This document shows, piece after piece, positions 41,500-46,891 of a DNA stretch of 64,000 bases; the stretch's first letter is position 1; every line of letters starts with the position of its first letter. Under the pieces are notes generated by a model. The model was given only the letters and a program-made list of their open reading frames with translations. It was not told where the DNA came from and searched no databases. This DNA is from Pyrobaculum sp. WP30 (GTDB lineage Archaea; Thermoproteota; Thermoprotei; Thermoproteales; Thermoproteaceae). The stretch covers positions 1,054,001 through 1,118,000 of the forward strand of contig CP012158.1 in assembly GCA_001189275.1 (NCBI GenBank), given 5' to 3'. The translations under genes were made by a program, and so were the position numbers.

Positions 41500-42051
41500 C
41501 TAACGTGTTAAAGCCCTCCTCACCTCTTCTAGCGCTTTTTCTAGCTCGTCGCCCCACTTGATGCGTTTTTTAAGCGTCTCAACGCGCCTGGCGAGTTCTT
41601 GTATCAGCTCTACCACGTCTGCGGCGGCGGACTCCCTCGTCGTGTATTTAGACAGCGCCATGTCTGGATCAGGGCCGTGATACTGGTAGTCGTGGAGGTC
41701 AAGCGCCTTATCGGTCACAAAAGTAATGCCCTCGTGGCCGACGTCTCTTAGCAGGCGAGACAGCTCTTTCATCTTGGTCGTCGGGACCCGAGGCACGGCC
41801 CTCGACTCAAGCCACCTCCTCTCCTCCTCCGTCTTGGCCAGGGCCTTCAGCTTCTCTAGCTCAAGCCGGAGGAGGGCGGCCAAAAGGGCCTTCCAGGCCT
41901 GGAAGGCTTTACACGCGGCGTTTCTCGTAAGGCCCCTCTCAAGATACTTCAACGCCAGCCGGGCCTCGCCCAGAGCCTCAAGAAGCCGGGCCTCGATATA
42001 GCCCTCGTCAGAGGGCTTGGGAAGGGGCTTCTCCACAAGCTCGACAGCCAT
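41500..42051 (-). CDS. PaREP1/PaREP8-like helical protein, copy 3
   Basis: 183 aa from ATG 42051, with the conserved TATA box (cttaaaag, about 42071-42078) 24 nt upstream. Nearly identical to copies 1 and 2: EARLLEALGEARLALKYLERG, LTRNAACKAFQAWKALL, LLRDVGHEGITFVTDKALDL, YQYHGPDPD and EVRRALTR at the end. Unlike copy 1 it has no foreign tail, and unlike copy 2 its ATG is intact, so this is the best reference copy. The DNA upstream also repeats the ggaagtggtgggg stretch found before copy 1. Confidence 0.82.
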   Translation of the reverse strand: MAVELVEKPLPKPSDEGYIEARLLEALGEARLALKYLERGLTRNAACKAFQAWKALLAALLRLELEKLKALAKTEEERRWLESRAVPRVPTTKMKELSRLLRDVGHEGITFVTDKALDLHDYQYHGPDPDMALSKYTTRESAAADVVELIQELARRVETLKKRIKWGDELEKALEEVRRALTR

Positions 42052-42502
42052 GGAAGTGGTGGGGTCGTCTCTTAAAAGTCTTTTTGGGCTGCGGGGCTGT
42101 GGGTGTCTGTTAACGTCTTCGTCTGTTGTTTTGTTGTACTCTATGTCGTATGTATTGCGACGGGCGTGGTGGTCTTAAGTTCTGTAAGGAGTCGTAAACG
42201 TATCGTGGTGTTGTGGTTTTGTTAATCGTCTTGTGGACGTTGATTCAACGTAGTGGGGTTGTTTAGTGTACTGTGATCTGGAGGCGGTGAGGGCGGCTTG
42301 TTGAAAGATGTCGTTGGTGAGGGTAGGGCATTTCGCGGTGGCGCGGGGTGTCTCTACCGTGGGTTTAGGGTGGACTGCAGATCGGGGCAGTGCAGGTTGG
42401 CCGTGGCCGCTGGTTGTGCCGGAGTTGTTCTTTGTCTTATATGGATGGGGCGCGGCACTGGGGGGTGTGATACAATTTAAAATCTGCGTAACGAGTTGCG
42501 GC
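42052..42502. other. Spacer with divergent promoter and a tiny membrane ORF
   Basis: The left end carries the PaREP8-like promoter. A 40-codon plus-strand ORF at 42103-42225 is very hydrophobic and starts 28 nt past the centre of the same (near-palindromic) TATA element, but nothing else supports it. The right end has a TATA box (aatttaaaa, 42474-42482) for the next gene. Confidence 0.35.
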
Positions 42503-42739
42503 GTGGATGTGGCGGTTGAGTTTCTTTGGCGGGTTGTCTCTGTTTTTGCGTGGACGGCGGGGGGTCTCTTCGTTGCTAGATTCCTCTCGGCTAGGGCTTG
42601 GCTGTTTGTGGGCCTTTCCCGCCGGCTTGGGGTGCCCGGCGGTTTGTTTGTGGTGGGCCTCGGCGAGGCGAGGGCGGCCCACGCCGCGTTGGCCCAGCTT
42701 CTCAGGGGGGGGCGAGGTGGACTTCCGGCACGTGCTTAA
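42503..42739 (+). CDS. Nucleoside-recognition (gate)-like membrane protein, N-terminal part
   Basis: 78 aa from the GTG at 42503, 25 nt after a TATA box. Two helices (residues about 4-30 and 35-60), then GLGEARAAHAALAQLLRGG, a motif like that of archaeal nucleoside-recognition or gate-domain proteins, and a short odd tail (RGGLPARA). The frame ends just after a run of eight G at 42705-42712. Deleting one G would join it smoothly to the next ORF (RGGEVDFRHVLK). So this is probably the first part of a single split gene. Confidence 0.6.
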   Translation: MDVAVEFLWRVVSVFAWTAGGLFVARFLSARAWLFVGLSRRLGVPGGLFVVGLGEARAAHAALAQLLRGGRGGLPARA

Positions 42740-43370
42740 GTTTTCCTTCGTGACGTGGCCTGTGCGCGTGGTGCTTCTGCACCTACGGCTGGGCGTGGTG
42801 CCGGTGGCTGTGGGGTCTCTGGGCCTCCTCGGCGTCGTGTATCTCGGCTTGGTCTACCTCCCCTCGCTGGTGGGGATGGTGCTTGGGCTTTGGCTGGGCC
42901 GCGGCCTGCGGTGGCCTGAGGCGGACGCCGCCGCGGCGCGGCTCTCGGCGCCGTCTATCTTCCGCACGGCTCTCTCGGTGGCTGGGCGCTACGCCGTCTT
43001 TGAGGCGGTCTTCCTCGTGCTGGATCTGTGGAATGTGAGAATCCGGCTGGACTGGCTTCCGCTTAGCCCCGAGGCCGTGGCGGCGGCGTCGCTGGCGGCG
43101 GTGAGACCGACGCTGGGTATCATGGCGGCGGCGCCGTCTTACTGGGGCGGCCGCGTCTCGGCTGGGGAGGTCCTCGCCGCGCTTCTGCTGGGCAGGATGG
43201 TGTACATGGCGTTGCAGGAGTTCCCCCGGGCCACTGTGCAGTTCTACGGCTCGATATATCCGCCAGCCGTCGCCGGGAGGCTTGTGTTGTACACGGCTAC
43301 TGTCCTCTTCGCAGTCTCCCTGCCCGTCGCCGCCCTACTGCTCTGGCTCGCCGCCACGAAAAGCCTATAG
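42717..43370 (+). CDS. Nucleoside-recognition-like membrane protein, C-terminal part
   Basis: 217 aa if started at the GTG at 42717, overlapping the previous frame by 23 nt. Five or six helices: residues about 15-50, 60-75, 100-115 and the C-terminal 185-215, with a polar stretch between. The G-rich run just before the GTG could act as a ribosome binding site, so separate translation is possible. In the related single-chain family the two parts are one polypeptide. No ligand can be inferred. Confidence 0.62.
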   Translation: MDFRHVLKFSFVTWPVRVVLLHLRLGVVPVAVGSLGLLGVVYLGLVYLPSLVGMVLGLWLGRGLRWPEADAAAARLSAPSIFRTALSVAGRYAVFEAVFLVLDLWNVRIRLDWLPLSPEAVAAASLAAVRPTLGIMAAAPSYWGGRVSAGEVLAALLLGRMVYMALQEFPRATVQFYGSIYPPAVAGRLVLYTATVLFAVSLPVAALLLWLAATKSL

Positions 43371-43688
43371 ACAGAGGGGCAAAGGCGACTGTCGACGAGC
43401 CACTCAGCCCTCTGACGGCTAAGGGCGCCGGTCGCGTCATGTCTATCCTCAAGACCTCATGAAGAGGAGGGGATTAGGCTTGAGGGGGCGAAGCTTGTTG
43501 TGATGTTCGCCCCGGCGGCGTCTAGAGAGGGTCGAAGATGTTAAGAAGGCGGTTGAGAAGGAGACCGTAGGTGCAGAGGGGCGTGGATGGTAGACAAGAG
43601 ACTTGTTGGAGTTTTAAAACTTCGACAAGAATGTAGCCGATGTCGAGGAGAAGATCTGTGCCGTGTTTATGCGGGGGTGGACGTAGGG
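43371..43688 (+). other. Decayed coding stretch
   Basis: No intact gene. Plus-strand pieces such as EEGIRLEGAKLVVMFAPAAS (about 43460-43525) and VEDVKKAVEKETVGAEGRGW (about 43528-43590) look protein-like but lie in different frames and lack a start. Family not recognised. Confidence 0.35.
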
Positions 43689-44000
43689 CTACTGGAGGCC
43701 TGCGGCGAATAGGAGGGCCTTCAGGTCCTCGGGATCGGGCGGCTTTTTGAAGTTGGCGACGTAGTTGAGGAGGAGGGCCTTAAGGGCCTCCCATTGCCAT
43801 GGCTCGGCGGGGTATCTGCCGGCGGGGGTCTCCACGGCGCCGTCTACGTACCGCAGGCGGAGGTGCCCCACGGCCGCCTCGTGTGGGGTTACCTCAAGCG
43901 TCAGGCCGGCCTCTTCGGCGGCTTTTTTGGCGTTGGCGTATATACGCGGCGTCGAGTCTTCGCCGAAGCGGAGCTTGTCTGCCGGGTTTATGACCGTCAC
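43689..44000 (-). CDS. Small conserved protein, unknown
   Basis: 103 aa from the GTG at 44000. This start is preferred to upstream ones because a TATA box (cttttta, about 44020-44027) is centred 23-24 nt before it. Soluble, with VTVINPADKLRFGEDSTPRI, a helical ANAKKAAEEAGL segment, AVGHLRLRYVDGAVETPAG, and a C-terminal helix followed by PPDPEDLKALLFAAG. It may be a DNA-binding or enzyme-accessory protein; I do not recognise it. It lies just downstream of a small ORF and the radical SAM gene on the same strand. Confidence 0.6.
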   Translation of the reverse strand: MTVINPADKLRFGEDSTPRIYANAKKAAEEAGLTLEVTPHEAAVGHLRLRYVDGAVETPAGRYPAEPWQWEALKALLLNYVANFKKPPDPEDLKALLFAAGLQ

Positions 44001-44020
44001 GGTCTCGTCCCGTTGTGTCT

Positions 44021-44254
44021 TTAAAAAGATAAGAGGTCCCACTCCAAGATGTAGTCGCATATGTCTGCGATAAATCTCCCGTGTCTCAGCGCCTTGGCGG
44101 CGGCTGGGTGGACCCCGGCGAGGCGCCACTGGGGATCTCTAATTCTCTCTCTAGTTATTAATACTCTCTGTTTTCTCTTATTCACGTACACATAAAACAC
44201 AGGTAAAGAGAATGCCGTGTTTATATACACAACAGGTAAAAACGCCTCAACCAC
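44021..44254 (-). CDS. Small ORF after the radical SAM gene, unknown
   Basis: 77 aa from a GTG at 44254, overlapping the radical SAM stop by 8 nt. It starts with a hydrophobic stretch (AFLPVVYINTAFSLPVFYVYV) followed by a basic segment (NKRKQRVLITRERIRD) and HPAAAKALRHGRFIADICDYI. The overlap suggests coupling to the upstream gene. No family recognised. The TATA box of the next gene lies in its last codons. Confidence 0.5.
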   Translation of the reverse strand: MVEAFLPVVYINTAFSLPVFYVYVNKRKQRVLITRERIRDPQWRLAGVHPAAAKALRHGRFIADICDYILEWDLLSF

Positions 44255-45047
44255 GGCGGCGGGCTTCTCGCCACTCCTCCTCCACGTCTCGGCAACGGAC
44301 CCCCACCTCTGCGCAAAACTCCTCTATGGTCTTCTTGACGCGGCTCCACCACCGGGGGGTGGGCTCCACGCGGCGGTAGCGCGCGGCTAGGTGGGCGTCT
44401 GCCCTCGGCTTGGGGCGGTAGCGGTCGTAGATGAGCTCCGCCCCTATCTCCCCGGCGAATTTCACCACCTCGGCGATGTCCTGGGGGCCGTCGTTGAAGC
44501 CGGGCACCACCGGCCCTAGGAAGATCCAGACCTTCACCCCAGCCGCGGCGAGTTTGGCGGCGGCGCGGGCCCTGGCGAAGGGGTGGGCGGCGAGCGGCTC
44601 GAGGATCCTCGCCTTGTCTCGCATGGTCGTTATTGTGAAGCCCACGTCTACGGCGTCTCTATGGCGCGTCAAGACGTCGAGGTCGCGAACCACCAAGCCG
44701 GACTTGGTCTGGATGGAGACGTGGAAGCTGGCTTGGGCTAGTATCTCCACCGCGCCGCGGGTCAGCTTGTATCTCGCCTCGGGGGGCTGGTAGGGGTCTG
44801 TGATGGTGGAGAGCCCCACGATCCCCGGCTTGGCCTTGGCCACCTCCCGCCTGAGGAGCTCCAAGAGGTTTATCTTGACGTACACCACCTGGCCCCACGC
44901 CGCGGCGGGCGGCCCCCTGGTGAAGTCCATGGCGTAGCAGTAGAGACAGCCGTGGAGACAACCCACGTAGGGGTTCAGGGAATAGTCGTACTCCGGGAGG
45001 CCCGACGGCGCGAGGGCGCGGCTGACTCTGATCTCGTATATCTTCAC
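44247..45047 (-). CDS. Radical SAM protein (SplB-like)
   Basis: 266 aa. The [4Fe-4S]/SAM motif C-x3-C-x2-C is GCLHGCLYCYA near residues 30-40. It is followed by VGLSTITDPYQPPEARY, STI and FTITTMRDKARILEP, VWIFLGPVVPGFND and ELIYDRYRPKPRAD. These are typical of the SPL-like radical SAM group found widely in archaea. The real substrate is unknown; DNA photolesion repair is only one possibility. ATG 45047 overlaps the stop of the 88-aa gene. Confidence 0.88.
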   Translation of the reverse strand: MKIYEIRVSRALAPSGLPEYDYSLNPYVGCLHGCLYCYAMDFTRGPPAAAWGQVVYVKINLLELLRREVAKAKPGIVGLSTITDPYQPPEARYKLTRGAVEILAQASFHVSIQTKSGLVVRDLDVLTRHRDAVDVGFTITTMRDKARILEPLAAHPFARARAAAKLAAAGVKVWIFLGPVVPGFNDGPQDIAEVVKFAGEIGAELIYDRYRPKPRADAHLAARYRRVEPTPRWWSRVKKTIEEFCAEVGVRCRDVEEEWREARRRG

Positions 45048-45310
45048 AGGTCGACCTCCAAGACTTGTCCAACCTCAACGTCGCCTAGGTACAGCCTCCC
45101 GTTTTTCACGGTCTTCTTCACGCCGCCGACCTCCCCCTCCCGGGGGAGGAAGAGTCTTATCTGCGAGTCGCCTTTTTCCCACTTGGCCGCGGTTTCTGCG
45201 GCCCCGTCTTTGACGCGGGCCGCGTTGCCGTGTTCGTCCACGGCCACGCCGCCGAAGTCCGCCACGACGATTTTCTTGCCGTATGTCCGCAGAACCGCGA
45301 TCTTAACCAC
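45044..45310 (-). CDS. Small beta-rich protein coupled to radical SAM
   Basis: 88 aa (start codon near 45310, ATGA overlap with the radical SAM gene). Reads as alternating strands: VKIAVLRTYGKKIVVADFGG, VAVDEHGN, QIRLFLPREGEV, GRLYLGDVEVGQVLEVDL. No cysteine or membrane segment. Not a family I know. The coupling suggests a partner or accessory of the radical SAM protein. Confidence 0.62.
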   Translation of the reverse strand: MVKIAVLRTYGKKIVVADFGGVAVDEHGNAARVKDGAAETAAKWEKGDSQIRLFLPREGEVGGVKKTVKNGRLYLGDVEVGQVLEVDL

Positions 45311-45525
45311 GTGTATGCGGGGGTTTCGGCTTAAAAATCTTCACCGCCCAGCCGCCGCTGGTTTGTGACTTGTTGTGACGAGGTCTACGATGTAGCCTAG
45401 GCGGTGGAAACATCTGCTGTCGCCGGGGGGTCTGGAGGGGAGGTTTTCGGGGGCGGACTGGGGCGGGAGGGTGTGCATCTTTCGCACCTTAGGGAGAGTT
45501 ATTAAGGCGGGTTGATGTGTGGGTT

Positions 45526-45996
45526 GTGAATGTGTGGCTTCCTCTGCTGGTGGTGTTTTCGTTGGGTGGGGTTGCGGCGTCTCTCCTGGTGGTGTATCTC
45601 TTCTATGTGTTGGGCACGTTGCCGCCTGGTTGCTACGCGGATCTCGAGGTTCTGCCCGGCGTCACGATGGACTGCGTAAGGGTGCTGACCAGCGAATACG
45701 CCTACGTGCCGGTTCCCGTGCTCGGCCGGGTGCCGCTGGACGTGGCGGCGGCTGTCTGGTTCGTGGTGAACATCGGGGCGGCTCTGTGGCTTTACAAGAC
45801 GCTGTCGCGGGGGGCGGCCCGTTTCGTCTTCTGGTGGCGCCTCCTGGGCCTCGCCATCTTGCCGTATCTCCTCTATCTGGAGTTCGCCGTGTTGAAGGCG
45901 GTCTGCATCTACTGCACCGTTATGCATGTCTTCATCTTGGCGGATTTCGTCGTGATTTCTATCTTCCTCCGGAAGATGGCGCCGCTGATAAGGTAG
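45526..45996 (+). CDS. VKOR family protein (thiol oxidase partner)
   Basis: 156 aa from the GTG at 45526, 23 nt after a TATA-like ttattaag. Four helices (residues about 5-30, 70-92, 102-118 and 128-150). The redox-active C-x-x-C (CIYC, residues 127-130) starts the last helix, and Cys36 and Cys50 in the first loop can serve as the shuttle pair. VKOR homologues reoxidise a thioredoxin-like DsbA using quinone and drive disulfide formation. Pyrobaculum-type archaea are known for many disulfide-bonded proteins. No DsbA gene is adjacent. The 3' end overlaps the convergent aldo/keto reductase. Confidence 0.85.
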   Translation: MNVWLPLLVVFSLGGVAASLLVVYLFYVLGTLPPGCYADLEVLPGVTMDCVRVLTSEYAYVPVPVLGRVPLDVAAAVWFVVNIGAALWLYKTLSRGAARFVFWWRLLGLAILPYLLYLEFAVLKAVCIYCTVMHVFILADFVVISIFLRKMAPLIR

Positions 45997-46891
45997 CGCC
46001 GTGGCGGCGCCAGAGCTCCTCCAGCCTCTCCAGGTGGTCCCGGGGCAGGAGCCTGCTGTCTGAGGCGGCGGCGTATTCCTCAAGCTCCTCCGGCGCCGTG
46101 GCGGTGACCACCACGCTGGCCACTGGGAAGGAGAGCACGTACTTGACGGCGTATTGCGCCAGCGTGAGGCCCAGCTCTCTGGCCAGCGGCGCCACCTCCC
46201 TCTCCACGACGGCCCTCGCCTTCAGCATCCACTCCCTGGGCCGCAGGGATCGGTGGTCTGTGGGGTTTGGGTTGAACCTGTCGGTGAGTACGCCGGTGGC
46301 GTCGGGCACCCTGACCAGTAACCCGCTTCCGCCGCGCCTGATGAACTCCCTGCCGGGGTCCTGCTCCAGTATGTTAAAGACGAACATCACGGCGTCTAGC
46401 CCGGCCTCCAAGGCGGCGAGGCCCTCCTCCAGGACATAGGTCTCGGGCCCCAGGGCTGCGCCGACACACCTCGCCAGCGTTCCCCTCTGCGCCTTGAGCC
46501 AGGTCGCGGTTTTCCTCACGGCGTCGGCCGTGGGGTTGTGGATCATGAGTATGTCCGGCCGCCTGCCGAGCCGCTCCGCCGACTTGGCCGCGGCCCAGCC
46601 TAAGTAGTCGGGGTCGAAGCGCCTAGTCGGCTTCTCGAAGTGGTAGAAGTCGTAGCCCACCTTGGTGGAGAGGACCACGTCGTGTCCCCTCAGCCACTGG
46701 CCGAGGAGCTCCTCGCTCCTCCCCCCGCCGTATACATCCGCCGTGTCGAAGAGGTTTATGCCCAGGTCCAGGGCCTTGTTAACCAGCCTCCGCGCCTCCT
46801 CGTCGCTCAGCCTATAAAGCTCGCTCCCCACCACCCACCCGCCGAGGCCGATCTCAGACACCTCAAGCCCGCAGAGGGTCCTCCGGCGCAT
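45959..46891 (-). CDS. Aldo/keto reductase
   Basis: 310 aa. N-terminus LCGLEVSEIGLGGWVVGSEL, catalytic Asp/Tyr region LFDTADVYGGGRSEELLGQWL near residues 50-70, the Lys in VVLSTKVGYDF near 80, and LMIHNP for the His position, where many members have H. It should be an NADPH-dependent (beta/alpha)8 reductase of small carbonyls; the substrate is not predictable. A TATA box (agatttaaact, about 46909-46918) lies 23 nt before ATG 46891, at the 3' end of the phosphoesterase gene. Confidence 0.9.
   Translation of the reverse strand: MRRRTLCGLEVSEIGLGGWVVGSELYRLSDEEARRLVNKALDLGINLFDTADVYGGGRSEELLGQWLRGHDVVLSTKVGYDFYHFEKPTRRFDPDYLGWAAAKSAERLGRRPDILMIHNPTADAVRKTATWLKAQRGTLARCVGAALGPETYVLEEGLAALEAGLDAVMFVFNILEQDPGREFIRRGGSGLLVRVPDATGVLTDRFNPNPTDHRSLRPREWMLKARAVVEREVAPLARELGLTLAQYAVKYVLSFPVASVVVTATAPEELEEYAAASDSRLLPRDHLERLEELWRRHGATLSAAPSSGGR

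What the first reader, a model, noticed from the sequence alone, without database searches (positions are those of the whole stretch)
42503..43370. Membrane gene split at a run of eight G
Two overlapping frames join into one nucleoside-recognition-type protein if one G of the G8 run at 42705-42712 is removed. Homopolymer slippage (real phase variation, programmed shifting or a sequencing error) would switch between the full protein and a 78-aa fragment.
Basis: partly seen in the sequence, partly recalled or inferred. Interest (0 to 1): 0.5.

Follow-up and report, generated by a model that had tools for sequence, protein, structure and literature searches.

The report
Membrane gene broken at eight Gs
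A membrane-protein gene of a heat-loving archaeon is interrupted by what looks like one extra G in a run of eight, most likely a base-count error or a recent chance slip rather than a built-in switch.

Summary
The break is real in the assembly. An N-terminal frame starting at GTG 42503 and a C-terminal frame ending at 43370 meet at a G8 run, 42705-42712. Codon usage changes frame there. All 8 near-full-length orthologues found outside the window's genome encode one continuous protein across the site. So this is one gene with a single-base frame break, not two genes.

The tract is not conserved: the 8 relatives have 3-6 G there, in frame. RNA folding shows nothing unusual. The C-terminal part evolves no faster than in its sister, so any real break is probably recent; the N-terminal part is less clear. 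G8 is rare rather than favoured: 1 in the window against 11.65 expected.

This is the pattern of a singleton frameshift. I favour a one-base consensus error (about 0.5) over a recent real slip (about 0.35). A phase switch (about 0.08) has no direct support. No conspecific genome or reads were available, so error and mutation cannot be separated here. The label 'nucleoside-recognition type' is not supported: no Pfam Gate match at this locus.

The parts
42476..42483 (+). TATA-like box (TTTAAAAT), centre 23.5 nt before the GTG, as expected for a leaderless archaeal transcript
   Evidence: sequence; spacing rule recalled; that Pyrobaculum does not use Shine-Dalgarno on first cistrons is in a passage of PMC2943090
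42503..42739 (+). N-terminal reading frame as assembled, 78 aa; homology to relatives ends at the G run
42705..42712 (+). G8 run where the reading frame changes
42714..43370 (+). C-terminal reading frame (218 aa plus stop), 48-64% identical to 8 orthologues

Best explanation
This is one ordinary gene for a conserved, helical, probably membrane protein of Pyrobaculum and near relatives, of unknown role. In this assembly its frame is broken by one extra G in a homopolymer. The most likely cause is a base-count error in the consensus, so that the living cell makes the full protein of about 288 aa. Shown: one gene, a frame break at the run, no conservation of the run. Inferred: that the extra base is not in the DNA.
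For: 8 of 8 near-full-length orthologues are one open frame through the site and align to both halves without a gap at the junction. The N-terminal half is still 47% identical to the nearest relative. The C-terminal half shows no excess of private changes against its sister (22 to 22, 22 to 23, 22 to 20, 23 to 18, 18 to 15 with five outgroups). dN/dS of the 3' part against the closest MAG is 0.53, within the 0.11-0.56 of five neighbouring genes (only 7 changes in 78 codons). A TATA-like box lies at leaderless distance from the GTG. A second G run in a gene of the same genome (G10 in a KaiC-like ATPase, C1:1769820-1769829) also sits at a frame change; 6 of 6 matches in 5 relatives read through that site in one frame with no run of 8 or more G there. 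The GeneTack authors expect homology-confirmed singleton frameshifts to be sequencing errors rather than genuine indels (PMC3711429, passages seen).
Against: No reads, platform information or second genome of the species were available. The same GeneTack paper elsewhere lists indel mutation and sequencing error side by side for singletons. [quoted passage not shown] The window protein has a longer end branch than its sister (0.63 against 0.42). In the N-terminal half, 2 of 5 outgroup tests show excess private changes (12 to 3 and 14 to 4, chi2 5.40 and 5.56), and its identity to the five other genus orthologues is 32-43% where the sister L010 has 42-52%. The closest MAG has its own one-base deletion later in the same gene, though that contig has another such deletion and a repeated stretch.
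Confidence: 0.5

Rival explanations
1. A real, recent one-base slippage mutation lengthened the run and inactivated the gene in the sequenced strain. The cell would make the 78-aa N-terminal fragment, perhaps with some reinitiation at GTG 42717 or 42732.
For: Homopolymer; runs of 7 or more G or C are scarce in the window (6 G and 0 C against 17.2 and 8.0 by a Markov estimate), which suggests such runs are costly here; MutS and MutL reported absent from the first Pyrobaculum genomes; longer branch and some excess change in the N-terminal half. Loss is tolerated in the genus: 3 of the 10 other genus genomes (G004, G006, G009) gave no match at E 0.001.
Against: No other lesion was seen in either half, and the gene is kept in 6 of the 10 other genus genomes (G008 holds a 3' fragment).
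Confidence: 0.35
2. Phase variation: the run changes length often, so that a population holds cells with and without the full membrane protein.
For: The genus carries long G tracts (a G10 match in 11 of 11 genomes); G000 has 20 runs of 8-14 G, 14 of them 10 or longer (merged by hand, recounted). Surface proteins are typical targets of phase variation (PMC3711429). [quoted passage not shown]
Against: Eight G is short beside the 10-14 class; none of 8 orthologues has 7 or more G here. By a simple codon model 16 of the 19 other runs in G000 lie outside predicted coding segments. The passages of PMC2831843 that I saw stress poly-A and poly-T, not poly-G.
Confidence: 0.08
3. Programmed +1 ribosomal frameshifting or transcriptional slippage makes the full protein from the G8 gene.
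For: A homopolymer and an overlap of the two frames.
Against: Orthologues do not need it; no unusual RNA structure (z 0.19).
Confidence: 0.02
4. Two separate, translationally coupled genes: an SD-like GAGGTG at 42714-42719 and a GTG at 42732 overlapping the upstream stop TAA 42737-42739.
For: The overlap is present. By geometry alone the junction resembles some operon boundaries of the window.
Against: No relative examined encodes two proteins with this boundary (8 of 8 single frames).
Confidence: 0.02

Closest known systems
Singleton homopolymer frameshifts (sequencing error or indel mutation) as classified in the GeneTack survey, PMC3711429 (passages seen)
   Same: One genome, homology-confirmed frame break, no relative found with the same break
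   Different: Nothing that I could test
Slipped-strand phase-variable (contingency) genes with homopolymer tracts
   Same: Homopolymer inside a gene for a probable membrane protein
   Different: Tract short and not found in relatives; no length variation shown
Pyrobaculum aerophilum G-run variability (recalled from Fitz-Gibbon et al. 2002; paper not held)
   Same: Same genus, G tracts
   Different: Recalled only; not tested on this locus

Membership tests
Phase-variable (contingency) gene | Repeat tract within the gene whose length change switches the frame | tested here: met
   G8 at the frame break
Phase-variable (contingency) gene | Length variation among cells or strains | not testable with these tools
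   No reads and no conspecific genome; the exact-flank pattern matches only G000 of 11 genus genomes, as expected at this divergence
Phase-variable (contingency) gene | Tract kept in orthologues (common, not universal) | tested here: not met
   3-6 G in 8 of 8 orthologues
Programmed frameshift gene | Frame break conserved across relatives | tested here: not met
   8 of 8 single frames
Programmed frameshift gene | Stimulatory RNA structure | tested here: inconclusive
   z 0.19 for 42660-42790; pseudoknots not modelled
Nucleoside recognition (Gate, PF07670) protein | Match to the Gate profile | tested here: not met
   No Gate match for P0001, P0002, L010, L014 or L019, L010, L017; the Gate scan of 11 genomes up to E 10 does not list this locus
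Nucleoside recognition (Gate, PF07670) protein | Fold of known nucleoside transporter structures | tested here: inconclusive
   Model of a relative, mean pLDDT 79.6, 5-sequence alignment; no Foldseek match at E 0.001; best VIA-align Z 6.6, rmsd 10.1 over 97 residues
Singleton frameshift | Homologues span the break in one frame and none found shares the break | tested here: met

The most novel reading that the evidence does not exclude
Poly-G tracts in Pyrobaculum act as contingency switches in an archaeon that may lack classical mismatch repair; this membrane gene and the KaiC-like ATPase with a G10 tract are two such switches caught in the off position.
Probability: 0.07. Interest if true: 0.6.

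Novelty: new member of a known kind. Interest (0 to 1): 0.12.

Why it matters
For annotation it matters a little: the gene should be read as one protein with a possible consensus error. If length variation were shown in culture it would be direct evidence of poly-G phase variation in a hyperthermophilic archaeon. My searches of open-licence PubMed Central text (listings, plus passages of six papers) did not show such a case, but the general idea of homopolymer switches, archaea included, is in print (PMC2831843).

Tried and rejected
Nucleoside-recognition identity: not supported by Pfam, NCBIfam or a Gate scan. Known structure: no hit for the alignment profile in the PDB sequences up to E 10, and no convincing fold match (middling Z for helical proteins means little). 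Selection test against the closest MAG: 78 codons and 7 changes, too few to decide. Upstream half in that MAG (G008): not found; its contig begins at residue 138 of the C-terminal query. Exact-flank length variants in IMG/VR: none. A paper search did not identify the strain.

Frame-change geometry in the window: I copied the segments by hand and checked 31 same-strand frame changes. By geometry alone this junction does not stand out: its upstream stop is 32 nt past the boundary, as at two others. Two places (about 17100 and 26095) are clearer outliers, with stops 218 and 452 nt past, and were not followed up. It is the homology to relatives that marks this junction as a break. The genome-wide run scan rests on a simple codon model trained on the window and may miss genes of other composition.

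Corrections to my notebook: 14 runs of 10 or more G (not 13) and 15 of 9 or more (not 14), recounted; its '5 Pyrobaculum' is 6 genomes of the window's genus plus 2 of a sister genus.

Full report
What is there. The window lies in a single-contig genome of 1,993,257 bases. I take the genus to be Pyrobaculum, from named records with the same gene: P. oguniense TE7 and a Pyrobaculum MAG. At 42705-42712 is a run of eight G. The frame that starts at GTG 42503 runs through it to a stop at 42739 and gives 78 aa. The frame after the run is open from 42492 and ends at 43370. A TATA-like TTTAAAAT at 42476-42483 is centred 23.5 nt before the GTG, which fits a leaderless transcript beginning at that GTG; this is my reading of the sequence.

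One gene, not two. A search of 41 genomes with the downstream part found matches in 11, the window's own included. Eight of the other ten hold a near-full-length orthologue (48-64% identity over the C-terminal part): six in the same genus and two in a sister genus. All eight are one open frame across the site, and both halves of the window's gene align to them with nothing missing at the junction. The ninth, G008 (a MAG, 74% complete), holds only a 3' fragment; the tenth, G020, has two distant copies at 28% identity. Two weak second hits (L021 in G003, L022 in G002) were left out of the count. Codon usage, trained on 38 long open frames of the window, favours the upstream frame before the run and the downstream frame after it, and a Viterbi path changes frame at 42704/42711. 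By geometry alone the junction resembles some operon boundaries; the homology decides.

Is the tract conserved? No. At the homologous codons the eight relatives carry 3, 3, 4, 4, 5, 5, 6 and 6 G. A search of 11 genus genomes for the exact flanks with any 5-11 bases between them matches only the window's genome, which says little at this divergence.

Is the run unusual? G8 occurs once in the window, where 100 dinucleotide shuffles give 11.65 on average. Runs of 7 or more G or C are rarer than a Markov estimate (6 G and 0 C against 17.2 and 8.0); runs of 6 or more G or C are close to it, and runs of 7 or more A or T (3 each against 0.5 and 1.7) are not depleted. In the whole genome, merging the overlapping matches gives 20 runs of 8 or more: five of 8 G, one of 9, one of 10, four of 11, three of 12, five of 13 and one of 14 (recounted). 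The run here belongs to the short class.

Does the rest of the gene look dead? The C-terminal part does not: it has about as many private changes as its sister with each of five outgroups. The N-terminal part is less clear: two of five tests show an excess (12 to 3 and 14 to 4), one leans the other way (6 to 10), and its identity to the five other genus orthologues, 32-43%, is below the sister's 42-52%. The end branch is 0.63 against 0.42 for the sister. Against the closest MAG the 3' part has dN/dS 0.53 from 7 changes; five neighbours range from 0.11 to 0.56. The MAG has a one-base deletion near 43221 in this gene, but also one near 45539 in a VKOR-family gene and a repeated stretch, so its frames cannot be relied on.

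A second case in the same genome. The 19 other runs of 8 or more G were read in 16 fetched stretches. A codon model puts 2 inside one coding segment (13 and 14 G), 1 at a same-strand frame change (10 G, C1:1769820-1769829), and 16 in segments it calls non-coding, some of them at gene edges. The G10 case breaks a KaiC-family ATPase (PF06745, E 2.5e-19 for the part before the run; no family for the part after it). Six of six matches in five relatives read through that site in one frame without a run of 8 or more G there; two of those loci carry long runs elsewhere, L059 a G17 run 448 nt before the match and L054 a G14 run 633 nt after its start. So this genome has at least two poly-G frame breaks in genes whose relatives read through. 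Errors or chance slips at G runs would give this, and switches might too.

What the protein is. Pfam and NCBIfam give no match above cut-off for the two window parts or the relatives scanned. Gate (PF07670) matches one other gene of G000 but not this one. An AlphaFold2 model of a relative (5 sequences, mean pLDDT 79.6) is all helical and has no convincing structural match. A conserved, probably membrane-embedded protein of unknown role is as far as the evidence goes.

Mechanism and verdict. The pattern is a singleton frame break at a homopolymer. The GeneTack authors expect homology-confirmed singletons to be sequencing errors rather than indel mutations, though elsewhere they list both (PMC3711429, passages). 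One-base slips in short runs are prominent in Sulfolobus acidocaldarius, and the first Pyrobaculum genomes were noted to lack MutS and MutL (PMC4471258, passages); here two MutS-domain genes are nevertheless present in G000, and the NucS family PF01939 matches in 11 of 11 genus genomes, above cut-off in 10. I put 0.5 on consensus error, 0.35 on a recent real slip, 0.08 on phase variation, and 0.02 each on programmed shifting and on two coupled genes. Reads decide it, and none were available.

Noticed in passing
G000 C1:1884797-1887741 (locus L060, 2298-5242, minus strand): Two adjacent genes of 487 and 494 aa, each with a MutS domain V match (PF00488, E 3.2e-14 and 7.1e-16); of 11 genus genomes only G005 also has a match, although the first Pyrobaculum genomes were described as lacking MutS.
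   Followed up: partly
G000 C1:1769820-1769829 (locus L043, 2001-2010, minus strand): A KaiC-family ATPase gene changes frame at a G10 run; six matches in five relatives have no such run there, but a paralogue in G004 (L059) carries a G17 run 448 nt before the matched part.
   Followed up: partly
G000 C1:190418-190430 (locus L031, 2001-2013) and C1:966668-966681 (locus L038, 2001-2014): Runs of 13 and 14 G inside predicted coding segments that stay open through the run; the first gene matches ATPase_2, the second no Pfam family. Not compared with relatives.
   Followed up: no
window 41500-42051: PaREP1/PaREP8 family gene (PF05942, E 1.9e-28), with several DNA-level matches each in G004, G006 and G009.
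   Followed up: no
window about 26095 and about 17100: Two further same-strand frame changes by codon usage where the upstream frame stays open 452 and 218 nt past the boundary; possible frameshifts or overlapping frames.
   Followed up: no
window 43123-46886 against locus L028: The closest MAG contig aligns at 92-97% DNA identity but has one-base deletions in two genes and a repeated stretch, so it looks error-prone.
   Followed up: partly
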